Shown here: positions 10,948 through 30,338 of the stretch, in pieces
Numbering within the stretch: the first letter of the stretch is position 1
Layout of the letters: every line of letters begins with the position of its first letter
Notes under the pieces: model-generated
What the model was told of the DNA's origin: nothing
The model's input: only the letters and a program-made list of their open reading frames with translations
Databases searched by the model: none
Assembly: GCA_019359715.1 (NCBI GenBank)
Contig: JAHHGS010000123.1
Location: 1-34,150 of the forward strand
Source of the DNA: Aphanocapsa sp. GSE-SYN-MK-11-07L
GTDB taxonomy: Bacteria; Cyanobacteriota; Cyanobacteriia; Thermosynechococcales; Thermosynechococcaceae
Length of the DNA: 34,150 nt
Reading direction: 5' to 3'
Made by a program: the position numbers and the translations under genes

Positions 10948-12078
10948 GTGCTGTCTAAAGGCTTTGAAGTCGAAATCTACACCGGGACTCCCGCCGGCAC
11001 CATTGTCGGCTTGTCTGATCGGATTGTGGCAGACCTGGATGGGTTTGTGCGGGAGCCAGACAGCCGCAATGTCGAGTACACGACTGCGCCAGCCTATCAC
11101 TACGACCAACTGCTGTGCGATTTGGTGCAGCCTCGCCTGCGGCTGCGCGACTACCTGCAAACCCTGGGCAACTATACGCTGATTCCGGGCAGTACGCTGG
11201 GGTTGGGCGGCGGCGATCGGTTTTACCGTTCTGATCCACAGAATCCTTATCACACGTACATTGAGCAAACCTACGGCACCAAGGTCGTTACCGCTAGCAT
11301 TCATATCAATGTTGGAATTGCTGACCCAGAAGTGCTGATGCGGGCCTGTCGGCTGGTGCGGGTTGAAGCAGCCCTCTATTTGGCTTTGAGTGCATCTTCG
11401 CCCTTTTTAGACGGTCAGGTGACGGGTGATCATTCAACCCGCTGGGCCACCTTCCCTAAAACTCCGCCCCAAGTGCCTTTGTTTACCAGCCATGCTGACT
11501 ATATTGAGTGGACGGAGACTGAACTAGCCAAGGGCAGTATGCAAAATGTCCGGCATTTATGGAGTGCAGTCCGCCCAAATGGCGATCGCCGCCCTTACTG
11601 CCTCAACCGCTTAGAGCTACGCATTTGCGACCTGATGATCGACCCGATCGCCCTGCTGGCAGTGACGGCTTTATTGGAAGCTCGCTTGATGCAACTGATG
11701 GAAGAACCCGCCCTTGACCCATTGACGGCTAATCTGACCAATGCTGATTTGGCTGCTTTAGCTGATGCCAATGAGGCTGCTGCTGCCCACGCGAGTTTGG
11801 ATGCAGAACTAACCCACTGGCAAGACGGCCGGACGCTGCTGGCCCGCGACTGGATTGAGGAACTTTATGCTGAAGTGTGGCCAACGGCCAAACAGCGGGG
11901 CTTTAGTTGTTTTCTCTCCCCAATTACCCGGATTTTGCGTCAAGGCAATGAAGCTCAGCGTTGGCTGCAAGCTTGTGAGCAGGGACAAACGGTTGCCGAG
12001 GTAATTGAGCAGTCGATCGTGGCAGCGGCCGTCCTAGAACAGGATCTCAAAGACAAACTCTGTCAGCCGATCGGCTAA
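10948..12078 (+). CDS. gshA: Glutamate-cysteine ligase, cyanobacterial type
   Basis: A 376-residue enzyme that catalyses the first, ATP-dependent step of glutathione synthesis (gamma-glutamylcysteine). The opening LSKGFEVEIYTGTPAGTIVGLSD and the block FVREPDSRNVEYTTAP are characteristic of the cyanobacterial GshA family in the GCS2/carboxylate-amine ligase group, which is unrelated in length to the enterobacterial enzyme. Further conserved pieces are TLGLGGGDRFYRSDPQNPYH and the LELRICD block, which supplies acidic metal ligands in this superfamily. The start is GTG at 10948 with GAGG just upstream. No gshB lies nearby. It converges with the Anbu gene with 56 bases between stops. Confidence 0.93.
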   Translation: MLSKGFEVEIYTGTPAGTIVGLSDRIVADLDGFVREPDSRNVEYTTAPAYHYDQLLCDLVQPRLRLRDYLQTLGNYTLIPGSTLGLGGGDRFYRSDPQNPYHTYIEQTYGTKVVTASIHINVGIADPEVLMRACRLVRVEAALYLALSASSPFLDGQVTGDHSTRWATFPKTPPQVPLFTSHADYIEWTETELAKGSMQNVRHLWSAVRPNGDRRPYCLNRLELRICDLMIDPIALLAVTALLEARLMQLMEEPALDPLTANLTNADLAALADANEAAAAHASLDAELTHWQDGRTLLARDWIEELYAEVWPTAKQRGFSCFLSPITRILRQGNEAQRWLQACEQGQTVAEVIEQSIVAAAVLEQDLKDKLCQPIG

Positions 12079-12134
12079 AAAGGGCAGTGGTATCGACAGC
12101 GATTTTCAATTTCACCGGGGATAGTTTTTTGAAC

Positions 12135-12941
12135 TCACGATATATCACTACCGACAGGTGCTTCGGTTGGGTCTGGGAAAGCTGGTGATGGTACAAAGTT
12201 GTTTGGTTGGGGGTCATGCCAATCGAGGGGCGGCATGTGGTCAAAGGCTTTTCTGAGTGCGCCTTCCCAATACTTGCGAACTTTGACTAAATAAGGGTCT
12301 CCCACGGGCAATCTGAGCTGATGGCGAATCAGCAGGCTGTCGGCTTCATACATCACCATGTTGATCGGTGGGCCAACCGAAATGTTTGACTTCATGGTTG
12401 AATCAATTGAAAGCAGGGCGCACTTGGCCGCATCTTCCAGCGGGATGTCGTAGTTGAGCGTGCGATCTAAGATCGGCTTGCCGTATTTGGCCTCACCAAT
12501 TTGTAAGAAAGGTGTTTCTTTGGTCGCCTGTAGGCAATTGCCTTGGCTATAAATCAAAAACAAACAGGGTTCTTCTCCCTTAATTTGACCGCCGAGCAGA
12601 AAACTGGACTGGAATTCAATTTTGTCTTGCTGGAGCCAAGTTCGATTTTCATCTAGGACTTGGCGTGTTTTCTGACCAATGTAGCGAGCCACTTCAAACA
12701 TGCTGGGCAAGGTATGCAAATTCGCCTCAGCCTGGGCTTTCAGGTCTTTACGCAGCAAAGCTAAGATGCCTTGGCTCATTGAAAGATTGCCAGCAGTGCA
12801 GAGCACAATCACCCGATCGCCTGGGTCCGAAAAGTTGAATAATTTTTGGTAATTGGAAATGTAGTCTACACCAGCGTTGGTGAGAGAGTCTGCCGCCATC
12901 ACAATTCCATAGCGGGTAATCACGCCGAGGCAATAGGTCAT
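12135..12941 (-). CDS. Anbu-type proteasome-related Ntn hydrolase
   Basis: A 268-residue protein of the ancestral-beta-subunit (Anbu) family, related to HslV and 20S beta subunits. After Met removal the N-terminus is TYCLGV, exposing the predicted nucleophile Thr2. GIVMAADSLTNAGVDYISNYQKLFNF supplies the Asp (D18) and Lys (K33) expected near the active site. The family occurs in cyanobacteria and proteobacteria and forms ring or helical assemblies; its substrate is unknown. The Anbu partners I would expect (alpha-E, transglutaminase-like and ATP-grasp genes) are not next to it here. Instead it lies 27 bases after an aminotransferase gene on the same strand, suggesting co-transcription. The ribosome site is weak. 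Confidence 0.87.
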   Translation of the reverse strand: MTYCLGVITRYGIVMAADSLTNAGVDYISNYQKLFNFSDPGDRVIVLCTAGNLSMSQGILALLRKDLKAQAEANLHTLPSMFEVARYIGQKTRQVLDENRTWLQQDKIEFQSSFLLGGQIKGEEPCLFLIYSQGNCLQATKETPFLQIGEAKYGKPILDRTLNYDIPLEDAAKCALLSIDSTMKSNISVGPPINMVMYEADSLLIRHQLRLPVGDPYLVKVRKYWEGALRKAFDHMPPLDWHDPQPNNFVPSPAFPDPTEAPVGSDIS

Positions 12942-16132: not shown

Positions 16133-17482
16133 TTAACTTCGTCGCCGCCCATCTGGCATCACCGTGCCCCGTAAATCGACTTCACTCAGGTTTGCTGCCC
16201 CTAAATCGGCGGCCGTTAGGTTAGCGCGTGTCAAATCTGATCGAGACAAATTGGCTCCGGTCAAGTTGGCATCCCCTAAATCAGCCCCGCTGAGATTAAC
16301 CCCGCTCAGGTCAACTTTACTCAAACTCATGCCGCTAATAGTCGAACGATTAAGGCTGGCTCCACTCAGAGTGGCTCGACTCAAGTTAGCTTCACTTAAA
16401 GTTGAGCGACTCAGATTGGCTCCGGTTAGTTTAGCCCGACTCAGATTGGCTTCAATCAGATCAGCCCGGCTCAAATCAGCTTCGGTCAATTCTACTTCTC
16501 GCAAGTTAGCGCCGCTCAAATTAGCTCCTCTGAGGGTAACGCCGCTCAGGACTAGTCCGGCTAAGTTTGCTCCCCTTAAATCTGCTTGGCTCATGTCTGC
16601 CTTGTCCAAATTGGCACCACTCAGAATTGCCCCTCGCAAATTAGCACCTCGCAAATTCGTCCCCACGAGCTTCACCCTAGACAGGTTGGCTCCTGCCAGG
16701 TTGGCCCCAGTTAAGTCGGAACGACTAAGGTCAACATCCGTCAGGTTAGCCCCTGCCAAATTAGCCCCACTCAAGTCAACTTCGATTAGTTCTAGGTTAG
16801 TTAGGTCAGCATTAATCAATTGTGAACCGCTCAAATCGGCTTGATTTAAATTGGCTTGGCTCAGTTTGACCTCGCTAAAATCAACCCGGCTTAGATTGGC
16901 CGCACTCAGGTTGGTTCCATCCAAATTGGCCGACTTTAGGTTGGCTCCACTCAAGTTGGCTCCACTCAAATCGGCGGTGCTCAGATCAGCTTCCATTAAG
17001 TCAACGCGGCTCAGGTTGGCGGAGGTTAACTCAGTCCCGTGCAGATTGACTGCTCTTAAATCTGCGCCTTGCAAATTGATGCCGCTGAGGGCTAACCCGC
17101 GCAGGTCGGCTTTGACCAGATCAACCCGACTCAGGTCGGCTCCTTGTAAATTTGCCCCCCGCAGGATTGTCCCACTCAAGTCAGCTCGACTCAAATTAGC
17201 GCTGCTCAGATTTGCCCAGCTTAAGTCTGAGCAACTCAAATTGATCCCAATTAAGCTAGCCCCACTCAAGTCAATGTTGATCATGTTGGCGTTGACGAGT
17301 TCAGCCCCATTCAGCAGGGCTTGACTCAGCTTGGCCCCGCTCAAATTTGACCACTCTAGGTCAGCGCAAGATAGATTAATGCCCGTCAAATCAGCGCTGA
17401 TTAGCTCGGCATGACTGAGGTACGCCCGGTTAAAATCTCGTTCTCCTGCTGCGTAGCGCTTTATAAGCTCATGGGCATCCAT
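16133..17482 (-). CDS. Pentapeptide-repeat protein
   Basis: A 449-residue protein made almost entirely of A(D/N)LXX-type pentapeptide repeats from about residue 18 to 440, roughly 85 units or 21 coils of a right-handed quadrilateral beta-helix. The short N-terminal cap MDAHELIKRYAAGERDF is the one seen on many cyanobacterial members, and the C-terminus ends RGTVMPDGRRRS. There is no signal peptide, membrane segment or partner domain, so a cytosolic rod is expected. Function is unknown for this class; DNA-mimic activity as in MfpA/Qnr is possible but unsupported here. The low-complexity sequence keeps antisense frames open. Its neighbours give no functional clue. Confidence 0.95.
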   Translation of the reverse strand: MDAHELIKRYAAGERDFNRAYLSHAELISADLTGINLSCADLEWSNLSGAKLSQALLNGAELVNANMINIDLSGASLIGINLSCSDLSWANLSSANLSRADLSGTILRGANLQGADLSRVDLVKADLRGLALSGINLQGADLRAVNLHGTELTSANLSRVDLMEADLSTADLSGANLSGANLKSANLDGTNLSAANLSRVDFSEVKLSQANLNQADLSGSQLINADLTNLELIEVDLSGANLAGANLTDVDLSRSDLTGANLAGANLSRVKLVGTNLRGANLRGAILSGANLDKADMSQADLRGANLAGLVLSGVTLRGANLSGANLREVELTEADLSRADLIEANLSRAKLTGANLSRSTLSEANLSRATLSGASLNRSTISGMSLSKVDLSGVNLSGADLGDANLTGANLSRSDLTRANLTAADLGAANLSEVDLRGTVMPDGRRRS

Positions 17483-18944: not shown

Positions 18945-19141
18945 GTCTCCTCCTGATACGTTGCGGTAGTGGTATTAAATTTCAGAACGACCCGCGCCCT
19001 AGAATTGCCTCTGACCGAGAGATTATAGCAATTCTTAACCCAGTCCCCTAGCTCTCTGAGATTGAGGTGGTCGCAACCCTTAACTTTAAGAGATTCTGAT
19101 CTGCCTGCTCTCCCTTGAACCTGAATGCTAGGATCTATCTT

Positions 19142-19227
19142 TAACGCTAGGGGTGCCTGAATTGGTCAGGCTGAGATTAGACCCTTAGAACCTGAGTCCG
19201 GGTCATACCGGCGGAGGGAAGCTGTTA
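19142..19227 (+). promoter_or_regulatory. TPP riboswitch (THI element) upstream of thiC
   Basis: The conserved THI-box pieces appear in order: GGGGTGCC (19149-19156), CAGGCTGAGA (19167-19176), the ACCCTTAGAACCTGA segment (19181-19195), CCGGGTCAT and ACCGGCGGAGGGAA. A closing P1 helix can form between TAACGCT (19142-19148) and AGCTGTTA (19220-19227) with one bulge. The thiC Shine-Dalgarno GAGG begins only five bases after P1, and no terminator intervenes, so TPP binding probably hides the ribosome site (translational control). Confidence 0.95.
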
Positions 19228-19243
19228 CTCTGAGGAACTTAAT

Positions 19244-25358: not shown

Positions 25359-27377
25359 ATGCCTAAATTGAATGTTCTGCGTCAAGGCTTGGCTGCTTCC
25401 CTGCTAGCAACAGCCCTAACCACAGGTGCAATTCTCTGTGAGACGGTAAAACCGAACGCCATAGCTCAACCCGCCCCGACCTATCCAGAGCCAGCCCAGG
25501 AAGTACGCTTAACCCAAGCTGGGTTGCTGGGTTTGCCTGCTTGGGGCTATCCCGTCGCAGCAGTGGTGGTATTTCTCGTCTTCTTGCCACAGTTGGGTTG
25601 GGTGGCTGGGCTAATTGTGATTGGTGAGCGAGAAGTTGGGGTTGTAACCAAAAAGTTCTCCGCTAAAAGCTTGCCGGCCGGGCGGCTGATCGCTCTGAAT
25701 GGCGAAGCCGGTTTGCAAGCCGACACCTTAGCTCCCGGCTGGCATTTTGGCTACTTCCCCTGGCAGTTTAGTATCCGCAAAGAGCCAGTTGCGATCATTC
25801 CCCAAGGCGAAATTGGTTTGATTTTAGCCAATGACGGCGCAACAATTCCCCCCGATCGGATTTTGGCCAAAACCGTTGTATGTGAAGATTTTCAGAATGC
25901 CCGCCAGTTTCTACTCAACAAGGGTGAAAAAGGACGGCAGTTGGCGATTTTAACGGCGGGCACCTATCGAATTAATACAGCCCTGTTTGAAATTATTACA
26001 TCTAGCAATGCGACCAAGCATGGGATGAGCCAAACTGATTTGAAAGTCCAAACAGTGCAGCCAGAAGCCGTCGGGATTGTCACCACCCTAGATGGGATGC
26101 CGATCTCGGAAGGTGAAATTGCTGGGGCGGTGATTCCTGACCACGAAAACTTCCAAAAGACGCAACTGTTTATCGATGGCGGCGGGCGGCGGGGGCTGCA
26201 AGAACAGGTGATTCTGTCGGGTTCCTGGAACCTCAACCCTTGGTTCGTCAAGGTACAGCAGACGCCGATGACTGAGGTGCCGATCGGCTATGTCGGTGTG
26301 GTGATTTCCTTTGTCGGGGAATCGCAAAAAGATATCAGCGGCGACGCTTTCACCCACGGCAACTTGGTCAACAAAGGCGATAAAGGGGTTTGGGTGGAAC
26401 CCCTCTATCCCGGCCGGCATCCGCTGAATACCCACATCATGAAAATGGAATTGGTGCCGACGACCAATATTGTGCTCAACTTCACGGCTCGATTTAGCGG
26501 CGAACACGGCTACGACACGGAACTTCATGCCCTCAAGCTGCTGTCGTTTGATGGCTTCACCTTTGAGCTAGAAGTGTTCCAGGTGATTCACGTCGGCGCA
26601 CTGGATGCCCCGAAGGTGATTTCTCGGCTTGGTTCAATGCAAAATCTGGTCGATCAGGTGCTGCGGCCGATTGTCGGCAACTATTTCCGCAACTCGGCCC
26701 AGGAATATACGATTCTAGATTTTCTGATTGCCCGCAGTGAGCGGCAGGCAGAAGCGGCCGAGCACGTCCGGCAGGCCTTGCGGGCCTACGATGTCCAGGC
26801 GGTGGATACGCTGATTGGGCTAATTACTCCACCCCCTGAGCTAATGCAAACCCTCACCGATCGCAAAATTGCCCAAGAGCAGCAAAAAACCTATGAAGTC
26901 CAGCGCCTAGCCCAAACCCAACGCCAAGAGCTAGTGCGTGAAACCACCCTGGCGGATATTCAAACCCAAGTCGTCACGGCAGAGCAAGGGGTCAAAATTG
27001 CAGAGCTGCAAGCGACGGCCAAAGTCAAGCAGGCAACTGGGGAAGCCGAGTCAATTCGAGTCACCGGCGAGGCTAAAGCCGATGCCTATACGGCGGGGGT
27101 GAATGCCCTCGGTGCCCAAGCCTACACCGCCCTCCAACTGATGCAGGTGATTGGCGATCGGCAAGTCCGAGTCGTGCCGGATGTCTCGGTCAGCGGTCAA
27201 AACGGCGGCGGCTTACTGGACGCAATGATGGGCATGCTGGTTTTGAATCAGACCAAAGATCCCTCAGGCAACGGCGGCATCCCTCAGCCAGCGATCGCAA
27301 AACCTGATTTGGCAAAGCCGGCGATTGTCAATGGTCAAGTCGTTGAGCCAATCATTGATCCGAGTGAGCAGGGCTGA
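25359..27377 (+). CDS. SPFH/Band 7 (flotillin-like) membrane protein
   Basis: A 672-residue protein. Hydrophobic segments lie at about residues 9-24 and 62-84. A signal or first anchor is followed by a Pro-rich linker, then the second anchor and the SPFH region from GEREVGVVTKK onward (IGLILANDGATIPPDRILA, GTYRINTALF, PIGYVGVVISFVG). Residues about 500-580 form a Gln/Glu-rich coiled coil with repeated TGEAES and TGEAKA motifs, as in flotillins, ending with a Gly-rich and Pro/Ala-rich tail. Such proteins scaffold membrane microdomains or protease and stress complexes; the partner here is unknown. ATG 25359 was chosen; a TTG at 25341 is in frame and nearer an AAGGG. It almost touches the kinase gene downstream. 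Confidence 0.85.
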   Translation: MPKLNVLRQGLAASLLATALTTGAILCETVKPNAIAQPAPTYPEPAQEVRLTQAGLLGLPAWGYPVAAVVVFLVFLPQLGWVAGLIVIGEREVGVVTKKFSAKSLPAGRLIALNGEAGLQADTLAPGWHFGYFPWQFSIRKEPVAIIPQGEIGLILANDGATIPPDRILAKTVVCEDFQNARQFLLNKGEKGRQLAILTAGTYRINTALFEIITSSNATKHGMSQTDLKVQTVQPEAVGIVTTLDGMPISEGEIAGAVIPDHENFQKTQLFIDGGGRRGLQEQVILSGSWNLNPWFVKVQQTPMTEVPIGYVGVVISFVGESQKDISGDAFTHGNLVNKGDKGVWVEPLYPGRHPLNTHIMKMELVPTTNIVLNFTARFSGEHGYDTELHALKLLSFDGFTFELEVFQVIHVGALDAPKVISRLGSMQNLVDQVLRPIVGNYFRNSAQEYTILDFLIARSERQAEAAEHVRQALRAYDVQAVDTLIGLITPPPELMQTLTDRKIAQEQQKTYEVQRLAQTQRQELVRETTLADIQTQVVTAEQGVKIAELQATAKVKQATGEAESIRVTGEAKADAYTAGVNALGAQAYTALQLMQVIGDRQVRVVPDVSVSGQNGGGLLDAMMGMLVLNQTKDPSGNGGIPQPAIAKPDLAKPAIVNGQVVEPIIDPSEQG

Positions 27378-27378
27378 T

Positions 27379-29280
27379 TTGGCCGCCTATTGCCTGCAAC
27401 TGGGCTGTCTGGAGCCAAAAAATCTGGTGGAAGCTTTATCCTGCCATGCCTGCGGCTCCAGCTTATTGCTGCGCGATCGCTATCGGGCTGTCCAATTACT
27501 CGGAGCAGGCGGATCGGGCAGAACATTTTTAGCGATCGATGAGCTGCGATCGGGGTTAACTTGCGTGATCAAGCAATTGCCCTTCTGCCAGTCTGGCCAG
27601 CCGCTCGCTCAAAAACTCGAACTATGGCGGTTATTGGGGCAGCATCCGCAACTGCCGTCCTGCTTAGATGGGTTTGAGCAAGCAGGCTGCTGGTATCTGA
27701 TTCAGGCATATATTGTCGGTCAGACCTTAGCCACCAGCTTGGCAAAAAACATTCACTTCAATCCGGCTGATATTTGGCAAATTCTGACCAACCTCTTGCC
27801 CGTGCTGGAGTTTATCCATGCCCAAGGCACAGTTCATGGAGATCTGAAACCGGAAAATATTATTTGTCGATCGCCCATCACCGCTGGCTTAAACAGGGTC
27901 AGTTTAGACGACTTGGTTTTGGTTGATTTTGGCTCAGTCCAATTGCTGTCAACCCTTGGGGGTAATCCCGCCCCCATCGTCGGCAGTCCTGAATATGCAG
28001 CCCCAGAGCAACTGGAAGGCCAGCCCAGCTTGGGCAGCGACCTCTACAGCCTGGGGGTAATTTGCATTCACCTGCTGACGGGGATGCGACCATTCAATCT
28101 GTTTGAAGTAGCCAATCACCGTTGGGTTTGGCAAAGCTATTGGCTGACTGAACCCAGCACTGCCAAAGCAGAGCTAGAAAACCAGCAGTTGTCCCAATTT
28201 CTCGATCGCCTGATTGCGCCTGACCTCAGCCAGCGGTTTGGCTCCGCCACAGCGGCGATCGCCGCTCTCTCAAAAATCAGCGGTCGTAAAGTCAAACCTG
28301 CTCCGTCTGTGCAATCACAATCACCAGGCTGGACCTGCACCGCGACTCTGACCGGCCATGCTGGGCTGTTTGCCAATGTCAACGCAGTGGCAATTGCGCC
28401 GGATCAAACCCTGCTTGCCAGCGCCAGCGATGACAAGACGATTCGGCTCTGGGATTTGCCCACTGGCAAAGCTGGGCCTGTTTTGCGCGGGCACAGCCAA
28501 TTTGTCCGCTCCGTTGCCTTTCATCCCCACGATCGCAGCCAATTGGTCAGCGGTAGCCGCGATCGCACCCTCAAACTTTGGCATTTGCCTACCCCAACCG
28601 AAATTCAGACCTTGAGCGGGCATCAAAATGCCGTCAATGCCGTGGGTTACGCTCCTGATGGGCAGACAATCGCCAGCGGCAGCGCTGATAAAACCGTCAA
28701 ACTCTGGGATGCCCAGACGGGTGAACTAATCGCATCTTTACAGGGGCACAGCTTGGGCGTGAGCGCGATCGCTTTTAGTCCCCTACTCACAGATCCAGAT
28801 CAGCCGCCGATTTTAGCCAGCGCCAGCGCTGATGCCACTGTCAAGCTATGGGAGTTAGAGCCGCTAACCTGTATCGCCACTTTGGTTGGACATTTACAAG
28901 CTGTGCAAGCCGTTGCCTTTAGCCCCGATCGGCAATGGCTGGCAACGGGCGGCGAAGACCGGACAATTCGGATTTGGAATACGAGTTCTTGGGGCTGCGA
29001 TCGCATTTTATCCGGGCATCCCTGGAGTATTTCATCCCTGGTCTTTACCGCCGACAGCCAGATCCTGCTCAGCGCCAGTTGGGATCACGCCGTCAAACTC
29101 TGGCAAGTCAAAACAGGGGCAGAAATTGGGCGGCTAGTCGGTCATACCGATGTGGTGAGTGATGTGGCAATCGCTCCCGACCAAAATCTGATTGTGACCA
29201 GCAGTCACGATCAAACCATCAAGCTCTGGCAGCGGAATCAGGAAATTATTCAACCAACAAGATCCCGCTGGCGGGACTGA
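27379..29280 (+). CDS. Serine/threonine protein kinase with seven WD40 repeats
   Basis: A 633-residue fusion. A small zinc-ribbon-like stretch (C5, C10, C22, C25) leads into the kinase domain: glycine loop LLGAGGSGRTF (40-50), ATP lysine K65, catalytic loop HGDLKPEN (153-160) with Gly in place of the usual Arg, DFG at 183-185, and AAPE (207-210). Seven WD40 repeats follow from about residue 320, each ending in LWD/IWN-type motifs, enough for one closed propeller. No membrane segment is seen. TTG 27379 is preferred, as AGGG lies five bases upstream and it starts one base after the SPFH stop; a GTG at 27364 and an ATG at 27325 would overlap that gene. The last eleven codons and the stop lie in a CRISPR-like repeat. 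Targets are unknown. Confidence 0.88.
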   Translation: MAAYCLQLGCLEPKNLVEALSCHACGSSLLLRDRYRAVQLLGAGGSGRTFLAIDELRSGLTCVIKQLPFCQSGQPLAQKLELWRLLGQHPQLPSCLDGFEQAGCWYLIQAYIVGQTLATSLAKNIHFNPADIWQILTNLLPVLEFIHAQGTVHGDLKPENIICRSPITAGLNRVSLDDLVLVDFGSVQLLSTLGGNPAPIVGSPEYAAPEQLEGQPSLGSDLYSLGVICIHLLTGMRPFNLFEVANHRWVWQSYWLTEPSTAKAELENQQLSQFLDRLIAPDLSQRFGSATAAIAALSKISGRKVKPAPSVQSQSPGWTCTATLTGHAGLFANVNAVAIAPDQTLLASASDDKTIRLWDLPTGKAGPVLRGHSQFVRSVAFHPHDRSQLVSGSRDRTLKLWHLPTPTEIQTLSGHQNAVNAVGYAPDGQTIASGSADKTVKLWDAQTGELIASLQGHSLGVSAIAFSPLLTDPDQPPILASASADATVKLWELEPLTCIATLVGHLQAVQAVAFSPDRQWLATGGEDRTIRIWNTSSWGCDRILSGHPWSISSLVFTADSQILLSASWDHAVKLWQVKTGAEIGRLVGHTDVVSDVAIAPDQNLIVTSSHDQTIKLWQRNQEIIQPTRSRWRD

Positions 29281-29282
29281 AA
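29251..29282 (+). repeat. CRISPR-like solitary repeat, copy 1
   Basis: This 32-base sequence recurs exactly at 30021-30052. It contains the perfect hairpin TCCCGC-TG-GCGGGA and ends GGGACTGAAA, here followed by C, giving the ACTGAAAC handle typical of cyanobacterial CRISPR repeats such as those of Synechocystis 6803. There is no second copy at spacer distance, so it is not an array. It supplies the last codons and stop of the WD40-kinase gene. Confidence 0.85.
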
Positions 29283-29552
29283 CTAACACTGGTGCCACCA
29301 TTGATCAGCGCGATCGCCGAAGATAGTCTAGGAAGCCATCGAGATGCCGGGGCTGTTGTATTTTGGCGGGGCAGTCAATATCTGCGGCGCAGCGCTCAAA
29401 AAAATTCAAGCCTGCGATTTGTTGAAGGATGGGCAAGGATGATTAGGGCGAGAATCACGATGAGCGGCTGATTACCTTTAAGCAACTCGCCCAAGTAGAA
29501 CCCTTGCCAGAAAAAGTAAGACATTTTGGTTAGCCACTCAGGAGACAAAGCA
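29283..29552. other. Unidentified stretch, possible decayed coding sequence
   Basis: No intact gene is recognised. A GTG at 29292 opens a 59-codon frame ending at 29471 (it includes GAVVFWRGSQYLRRSAQ and RFVEGWARMIRARITMSG). A second frame then reads NHDERLITFKQLAQVEPL up to a stop near 29533. The two could be pieces of one broken gene, since both have normal-looking composition, but neither has a ribosome site and no family was recognised. It sits between repeat copy 1 and the antitoxin gene. Confidence 0.35.
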
Positions 29553-29798
29553 ATGACAACGATAACCCTGCATTCCCACGTTGGCTCAGATGGAGTTTTA
29601 GATTTGAAAGTCCCAATAGACCTCAAAAACACCGATTTAGAAGTCACAGTTACTATCAAAGCCATCCCGCCCAAACTCGACAGAGATCTGGGTGTGGATA
29701 AGGGCTGGCCAGAAGCATTTTTTGCAGAAACAGCAGGTTCAATTCCCGATCTAGAGCGCCCGCCCCAAGGTGATTATGACCTGCGCGAAGCCCTATGA
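29553..29798 (+). CDS. VapB-like antitoxin
   Basis: An 81-residue acidic protein starting MTTITLHSHVGSDGVLDLKVP. It overlaps by 4 bases (ATGA) a broken PIN-domain toxin gene, the standard order and coupling of a vapBC pair. The N-terminal beta-rich part resembles antitoxins often found with cyanobacterial PIN toxins, and the C-terminal half (GWPEAFFAETAGSIPDLERPP) would be the toxin-binding arm. ATG 29553 has AGGAG nine bases upstream; the frame is open to 29526 without a ribosome site. With the toxin destroyed, it may be an orphan antitoxin. The assignment relies mainly on the neighbour. Confidence 0.65.
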   Translation: MTTITLHSHVGSDGVLDLKVPIDLKNTDLEVTVTIKAIPPKLDRDLGVDKGWPEAFFAETAGSIPDLERPPQGDYDLREAL

Positions 29799-30015
29799 GA
29801 TACCTGCTCGATACGAATGCCTGCATTCATTATCTGCGATTTCTAAACTCGTCCGTCGCCCGTAAGATGGCAACTCTACAACAATTGGCCCGTTTGATTC
29901 ACTAATTGCCGCGATCGCCTTGTCCCACAATCTGATCCTAGTCACGCACAATACGGGTGAGTTCAGTCGGGTTGAAGGTCTATCCTTGGAAGACTGGCAA
30001 ATTGAAACTCTATAG
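29795..30015 (+). pseudogene. VapC PIN-domain toxin, internally deleted and frameshifted
   Basis: The frame starting at 29795 reads MRYLLDTNACIHYLRF, the PIN-domain opening with its first metal-binding Asp (D6), and stops at 29903-29905 after 36 codons. A different frame from about 29893 reads FDSLIAAIALSHNLILVTHN and then TGEFSRVEGLSLEDW to a stop at 30013-30015, which is the normal PIN C-terminus with its acidic residues. A functional VapC is about 130 residues; the middle, roughly 60 residues with the second acidic cluster, is missing. The loss therefore involves a deletion that shifts the frame. Endoribonuclease activity is not expected. Confidence 0.8.
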
Positions 30016-30020
30016 ATTTC

Positions 30021-30052
30021 CAACCAACAAGATCCCGCTGGCGGGACTGAAA
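30021..30052 (+). repeat. CRISPR-like solitary repeat, copy 2
   Basis: An exact copy in the same orientation, 770 bases after copy 1. Here the repeat is preceded by TTTC and followed by T, whereas copy 1 is preceded by TATT and followed by C, so each may keep a different end of a longer original unit of about 37 bases. It begins six bases after the stop of the vapC remnant. Confidence 0.85.
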
Positions 30053-30338
30053 TATTGTGAAAGTGACTCTGGCTAGGCTCTGAGAGAGCAAACTCTTCCT
30101 CAGCTTCAGCTTTCCGATAATGGCTATATATTGATGAAGTAACTTTAGCGACAGTCAGCTTGCTCAACTCTAAATTTTTGGAGAGACAGCCCGTCAGTCG
30201 TTGCTAAAATTAAATCTCAAACTCTCGATTTTGCTGCGATCGTTGCGGGGGCGATCCTCAGAGCATAGTTCTTCTCGGAAACTTTTTCCGAGAAAATTAC
30301 TCAAGCATTATTAAGAAACCTCACTAGACGTCACAAGG
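30053..30338. other. Gap before the NRPS gene, with a hairpin at 30272-30294
   Basis: No gene is seen. TTCTCGGAAA (30272-30281) and TTTCCGAGAA (30285-30294) form a perfect 10-bp stem with loop CTT, about 45 bases before the NRPS start. It could be a terminator for upstream transcription or a leader structure; four A and then TT follow. A HIP1-like GCGATCG lies near 30236. No clear promoter is visible. Confidence 0.45.

What the first reader, a model, noticed from the sequence alone, without database searches (positions are those of the whole stretch)
29251..30052. Two identical CRISPR-like repeats standing alone around a decayed toxin-antitoxin locus
Two 32-base copies match perfectly in the same direction, 770 bases apart. 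Each has a TCCCGC/GCGGGA hairpin and an ACTGAAA 3' handle, as in known cyanobacterial CRISPR repeats. There is no spacer-sized spacing, and the segment between holds a VapB-like gene and a broken vapC. Possible explanations: leftovers of an array, repeats spread as a small mobile element, or a repeat-controlled addiction module that has decayed (compare CRISPR-regulated toxin-antitoxin units, CreTA, where degenerate repeats guide Cascade to a toxin promoter). Recombination between the copies would also cleanly delete the segment.
Basis: partly seen in the sequence, partly recalled or inferred. Interest (0 to 1): 0.72.

Follow-up and report, generated by a model that had tools for sequence, protein, structure and literature searches.

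The report
Dead two-repeat CRISPR remnant around pseudogenes
Two copies of a CRISPR repeat, of the kind used by cyanobacterial type I-D immune systems, survive in a genome in which no such system was found, bracketing a decayed stretch with a broken toxin gene; this looks like the fossil end of an old CRISPR array rather than a working genetic switch.

Summary
Two identical 32-mers lie 770 bases apart, with no other copy in the 5.1 Mb genome. Each is part of a 37-nt unit (29247-29283, 30017-30053; 34/37 identical) of the cyanobacterial type I-D CRISPR repeat family: same length, hairpin and ACTGAAA handle as arrays beside complete I-D cas operons. No I-D Cas6 or Csc2 was found in the genome, and its only array found is an unrelated I-E-like one beside Cas1e, so the repeats are orphans. 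R1 is worn at its 5' end, where the upstream kinase-WD40 gene runs into it. R2 ends GAAAT, like the last repeat of a related array. Between them lie a truncated ddrB remnant, an open vapB-like ORF and a vapC with an internal deletion, abutting the repeats within about 1-4 nt. Best reading: the dead leader-distal end of a vanished I-D array whose last spacer slot holds 733 nt of gene debris. CreTA-style control is not supported (no effector found, no seed match, broken toxin), nor is a dispersed mobile repeat (two copies only). Segments of 0.3-1.7 kb between repeats also occur in arrays of three other cyanobacteria, the one mildly surprising point.

The parts
27325..29280 (+). kinase-WD40 gene whose last codons and stop lie inside R1
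   Evidence: ORF list; protein kinase and WD40 domains
29247..29283 (+). R1, type I-D-like CRISPR repeat, 37-nt unit, 5' end worn, 3' end GAAAC
29288..29520 (+). ddrB-like pseudogene, 5' half missing, frameshifted; certain from 29338, the first 50 nt by a short match seen by eye
   Evidence: 76% DNA identity to the own-genome copy on C81, which is Pfam DdrB; frames
29553..29798 (+). VapB-like antitoxin ORF, open, no Pfam match of its own
   Evidence: homologous to ORFs in front of vapC in C102 and G010
29795..30015 (+). vapC pseudogene: keeps start and C-terminal part, large internal deletion and frameshift
   Evidence: 77% DNA identity to the intact PIN-domain gene on C102
30017..30053 (+). 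R2, type I-D-like CRISPR repeat, 37-nt unit, 3' end GAAAT as in a terminal repeat

Best explanation
R1 and R2 are the last two repeats (leader-distal end) of a former type I-D CRISPR array. Shown: they belong to the I-D repeat family, only two exist, I-D Cas6 and Csc2 are not detectable, R1 is worn at its 5' side where the wd40 gene runs into it, and R2 has a 3' end seen in a terminal repeat. Inferred: the leader, the other repeats and the cas genes were lost by deletion, and the 733-nt ddrB'-vapB-vapC' segment came to occupy the last spacer slot before or during that decay. The clean abutment on both sides suggests that entry used the repeats as junctions, for example homologous recombination with a repeat-carrying DNA. 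The locus now most likely does nothing as CRISPR; the repeats could still recombine and delete the segment.
For: Only two copies in the genome. 37-nt repeats with the core ATCCCG-N4-CGGGACTGAAAC form arrays of 4-147 copies in many cyanobacteria. Such arrays in G177 and G138 stand beside Cas3d-Cas10d-Csc2-Csc1-Cas6d-Cas4d-Cas1d operons. R1/R2 score 29 and 28 of 37 against the G074 repeat; the next best place in the window scores 22. Internal repeats end in C; the last repeat of the G074 array ends in T like R2. Own genome: no Cas6 PF10040 and no Csc2 PF18320, with models that do recognise I-D proteins; the one Cas10 hit is a GGDEF protein; the only Cas1 is Cas1e next to an array with a different repeat. 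The genes at the junctions are damaged or fused. Segments of 0.3-1.7 kb between repeats occur in arrays of G164, G035 and G033.
Against: No spacer of normal size and no third repeat remain, so 'array' rests on the repeat sequence and on the R1/R2 end pattern; only one of about a dozen terminal repeats inspected ends in T. The exact TGG-loop repeat is known from no array searched. No relative with an intact or empty site was found. Lone I-D-like repeats outside arrays are seen in other cyanobacteria, so R1 and R2 could each have been ectopic from the start.
Confidence: 0.66

Rival explanations
1. R1 and R2 were never part of an array: they are ectopic solitary repeats (or one ectopic repeat duplicated when the ddrB-vapBC segment entered by recombination with a repeat-carrying mobile DNA), as in solitary repeat units proposed to act on CRISPR systems or to allow integration into arrays.
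For: Solitary full-length repeats of this family occur in intergenic or gene-end positions in several cyanobacteria, four ending GAAAT like R2. No normal spacer remains here. The segment holds toxin-antitoxin and ddrB-like debris of the sort found on mobile DNA. Solitary repeat units on mobile elements are documented (PMC10651486).
Against: None of this repeat core in viral contigs, phages or plasmids at the sensitivity used. The host shows no I-D system to act on, and no promoter-like site reads into the repeats in their own direction. No integrase or other mobility gene between the repeats.
Confidence: 0.22
2. A CreTA-like, repeat-controlled addiction module: an RNA from R1 or R2 guided a Cascade to repress the toxin.
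For: Two repeats and a toxin-antitoxin pair in one small locus; the repeats keep hairpin and handle.
Against: No I-D Cas6 or Csc2 found; repeats near-identical and 733 nt apart instead of degenerate around a short guide (PMC9458426); no match of 7 nt or more between the DNA behind either repeat and the vapB upstream region; the toxin is a broken protein gene, and it has its own protein antitoxin.
Confidence: 0.03
3. The 733-nt segment was captured between duplicated repeats by the CRISPR adaptation machinery as a giant spacer.
For: Repeats abut the segment with about 1-4 nt to spare; other I-D-like arrays hold inserts of 0.3-1.7 kb between repeats.
Against: Known spacers in the arrays seen here are about 35-45 nt; the inserts in G164 and G035 have no near-identical source in their genomes; recombination between repeats explains the same junctions.
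Confidence: 0.05
4. A dispersed mobile repeat of the REP or MITE kind that merely resembles a CRISPR repeat.
For: Copies stand alone at gene ends.
Against: Two copies only in the genome; sequence, length and handle fit the I-D repeat family far better than any other place in the window.
Confidence: 0.02

Closest known systems
Cyanobacterial type I-D CRISPR arrays
   Same: 37-nt repeat, conserved ATCCCG...CGGGACTGAAAC hairpin and handle, variable 5' third; a terminal repeat may end in T
   Different: Only two repeats, no normal spacer, no leader recognised, no I-D cas genes found in the genome
CreTA (CRISPR-regulated toxin-antitoxin)
   Same: Two repeats and a toxin-antitoxin element in one locus
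   Different: CreTA has degenerate repeats around a short guide, an RNA toxin and a live Cascade; none of these was found here
Solitary repeat units / Racr RNA anti-CRISPRs
   Same: Repeat outside an array, with intact hairpin and handle
   Different: Two repeats, chromosomal contig, no promoter-like site reading into them, no matching host system found
Type II VapBC toxin-antitoxin modules
   Same: VapB-like antitoxin ORF overlapping the start of a PIN-domain toxin gene
   Different: The vapC copy is a pseudogene and the pair is flanked by CRISPR repeats

Membership tests
Type I-D CRISPR repeat family | Repeat of 36-37 nt with ATCCCG-N4-CGGGACTGAAAC core like arrays next to I-D cas operons | tested here: met
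Type I-D CRISPR repeat family | Hairpin in the repeat RNA | tested here: met
Functional CRISPR array | Repeats at regular spacing with spacers of about 30-45 nt | tested here: not met
   two repeats 770 apart only
Functional CRISPR array | Cognate Cas6 and effector genes in the genome | tested here: not met
   (99.5% complete draft genome)
Relict CRISPR array | Orphaned repeats with worn ends and a terminal-repeat signature | tested here: inconclusive
   orphaned and worn ends met; the terminal signature rests on few comparisons
CreTA | Served by an active type I Cascade and Cas6 | tested here: not met
   no cas genes among the ORFs around the unit
CreTA | Degenerate repeats flanking a short guide that matches the toxin promoter | tested here: not met
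CreTA | Small toxic RNA | not testable with these tools
   no expression data; the toxin gene present is protein-coding and broken
Racr / solitary repeat unit | Lone repeat on mobile DNA, matching the host CRISPR subtype, behind a promoter | tested here: not met
Dispersed mobile repeat (MITE or REP-like) | Many dispersed copies in the genome | tested here: not met
VapBC toxin-antitoxin module | Intact antitoxin and intact PIN toxin | tested here: not met
   vapC has lost roughly 75 residues and its frame

The most novel reading that the evidence does not exclude
Type I-D arrays of cyanobacteria repeatedly take up gene-sized DNA (0.3-1.7 kb, often small or broken genes) cleanly between two repeats, so that CRISPR repeats act as cassette junctions, and this locus is one such cassette that outlived its array.
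Probability: 0.08. Interest if true: 0.6.

Novelty: new member of a known kind. Interest (0 to 1): 0.3.

Why it matters
It is a clear example of how a CRISPR array may die: outer repeats outlast the immune system that made them and end up fused to neighbouring genes. If the parallel cases in other genomes hold up, repeats as precise junctions for gene-sized inserts would be worth a systematic count, since it bears on whether recombination or the adaptation machinery puts large DNA into arrays. For annotation, it warns against reading lone repeats next to a toxin-antitoxin gene as CreTA.

Tried and rejected
Exact 21-mer in GTDB contigs and viral contigs: nothing. Relaxed core in viral contigs: nothing. 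Phage and plasmid searches with R1 and flanks: nothing relevant. Segment against plasmids: only weak PIN-gene hits. DNA behind R1 as a protospacer in viruses: nothing. Rfam: no CRISPR or other credible family for the repeats. Empty site or orthologous locus in relatives: none; no other genome of the genus appeared among the relatives. Cas10 hit in the own genome rejected as a GGDEF protein. Recent self-origin of the inserts in G164 and G035 rejected. Spread as a mobile repeat rejected on copy number.

Full report
What is there. The window is a whole contig (C123) of a 5.1 Mb, 99.5% complete draft genome. The two 32-mers are at 29251-29282 and 30021-30052, identical and in the same direction. 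Extending to the family length gives two 37-nt units, R1 29247-29283 and R2 30017-30053, 34/37 identical, differing at positions 2, 4 and 37. There is no further copy in the genome at up to 3 mismatches over 25 nt. GGGACTGAAAC has only three other exact occurrences in the genome, of which the two that I read lie in ordinary sequence.

What family it is. The core ATCCCG-N4-CGGGACTGAAA(C) is found as arrays of 37-nt repeats at about 73-nt spacing in Planktothrix, Chamaesiphon, Oculatella, a Xenococcaceae genome and about a dozen unnamed cyanobacterial genomes. In G177 and G138 such arrays stand beside I-D operons: Cas3d, Cas10d, Csc2, Csc1, Cas6d, Cas4d, Cas1d. R1 and R2 score 29 and 28 of 37 against the G074 repeat and 27 and 26 against the G177 repeat; the next best places in the window score 22 and 21. 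The exact loop of this repeat was seen in no other genome or virus searched.

Is there a machine for it? No Cas6 (PF10040) and no Csc2 (PF18320) were found in the own genome, with models that clearly recognise the I-D proteins of G177 and G138. A weak Cas10-palm hit is a membrane GGDEF protein by its sequence. The one Cas1 is a Cas1e beside a ten-repeat array with an unrelated repeat, GGAGCACCCCCACGGGTGTGGGGAAAAC. The genome is a draft in 159 contigs, so absence is strong but not absolute.

The segment between. Behind R1 a ddrB-like pseudogene starts within about 4 nt if the short match GATIDQ/GATVEK, seen by eye, is accepted, and certainly from 29338 (76% DNA identity to an intact copy on C81). 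It has lost its 5' half and its frame. Then follow an open VapB-like ORF and a vapC that keeps about its first 14 and last 42 residues. The vapC stop is 1 nt before R2. Upstream, the kinase-WD40 gene reads into R1 and uses the TGA of the repeat handle as its stop. So the genes at the junctions are damaged or fused, while vapB inside is open.

Why a relic array. Internal repeats of arrays of this family end in C; R1 ends in C, R2 in T. The last repeat of the G074 array also ends in T, and the last repeats of two other arrays are altered at the same end. R1 differs from the family at its 5' end, where the wd40 coding sequence meets it. This is what two surviving distal repeats of an array would look like after a deletion removed everything on the leader side. 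The comparison set is small and I give it no significance value.

The oversized slot. Neighbouring repeats far apart are not unique to this locus. In G035 the last two repeats of an I-D-like array are 837 apart, with three small ORFs between. In G164, 1667 nt with an ABC-protein fragment and another gene fragment sit directly against repeats. In G033, 289 nt with promoter-like and terminator-like sequence lie inside an 88-repeat array. The inserts of G164 and G035 are not recent copies of other loci of their genomes. About two dozen arrays were inspected, chosen by the pattern searches and not at random. Repeat-precise junctions may come from recombination between repeats; capture of an oversized spacer is possible but has no direct support.

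Why not CreTA, Racr or a mobile repeat. CreTA repeats are degenerate and serve a live Cascade (PMC9458426; PMC8501985, abstract). Here no effector was found, and the 36 nt behind each repeat have no match of 7 nt or more to the vapB upstream region. Solitary repeat units described as RNA anti-CRISPRs mostly match the host's CRISPR subtype and are transcribed (PMC10651486). Here the host lacks a detectable I-D system, and no promoter-like site reads into the repeats in their own direction. A dispersed element would have more than two copies.

Verdict. A real, correctly spotted CRISPR-repeat pair, best read as the fossil end of a type I-D array with gene debris in its last slot, and in all likelihood non-functional. 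Confidence 0.66 for the relic reading. Interest is modest, with one lead worth a wider count: gene-sized segments set cleanly between repeats.

Noticed in passing
L033:6440-6477 (Chamaesiphon polymorphus CCALA 037): A lone I-D-type repeat, with a degenerate second copy apparently just before it, lies between cas3d and the cas10d side of an I-D operon. CreTA-like or autoregulatory ectopic repeats are found in such places; a better CreTA candidate than the window locus.
   Followed up: partly
L065:9790-10589 (G035:C44:53789-54588): 800-nt segment with three small ORFs between the last two repeats of an I-D-like CRISPR array; part is 79% identical to another locus of the same genome.
   Followed up: partly
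L089:7620-9286 (G164:C1:1019620-1021286): 1667-nt segment with a truncated ABC-protein gene and another gene fragment set directly between CRISPR repeats at the decayed end of a very long array.
   Followed up: partly
L088:7692-8018 (G033): 289-nt insert inside an 88-repeat array with promoter-like and terminator-like sequence, perhaps a small RNA unit; no Rfam family above its gathering score.
   Followed up: partly
L029, L035, L038, L042, L066, L067, L072: Solitary full-length I-D-like repeats in intergenic or gene-end positions in several cyanobacteria, four of them ending GAAAT.
   Followed up: partly
L016:10657-11280 and 11570-12484 (G000:C96): The genome's only CRISPR array found: about ten I-E-like repeats beside Cas1e, with no Cascade gene recognised among the neighbouring ORFs, so it too looks reduced.
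   Followed up: partly
window 19139-19236: TPP riboswitch, above the Rfam gathering score.
   Followed up: no
window 16266-17345: Repeats with 15-base periodicity, as in a gene for a pentapeptide-repeat protein.
   Followed up: no
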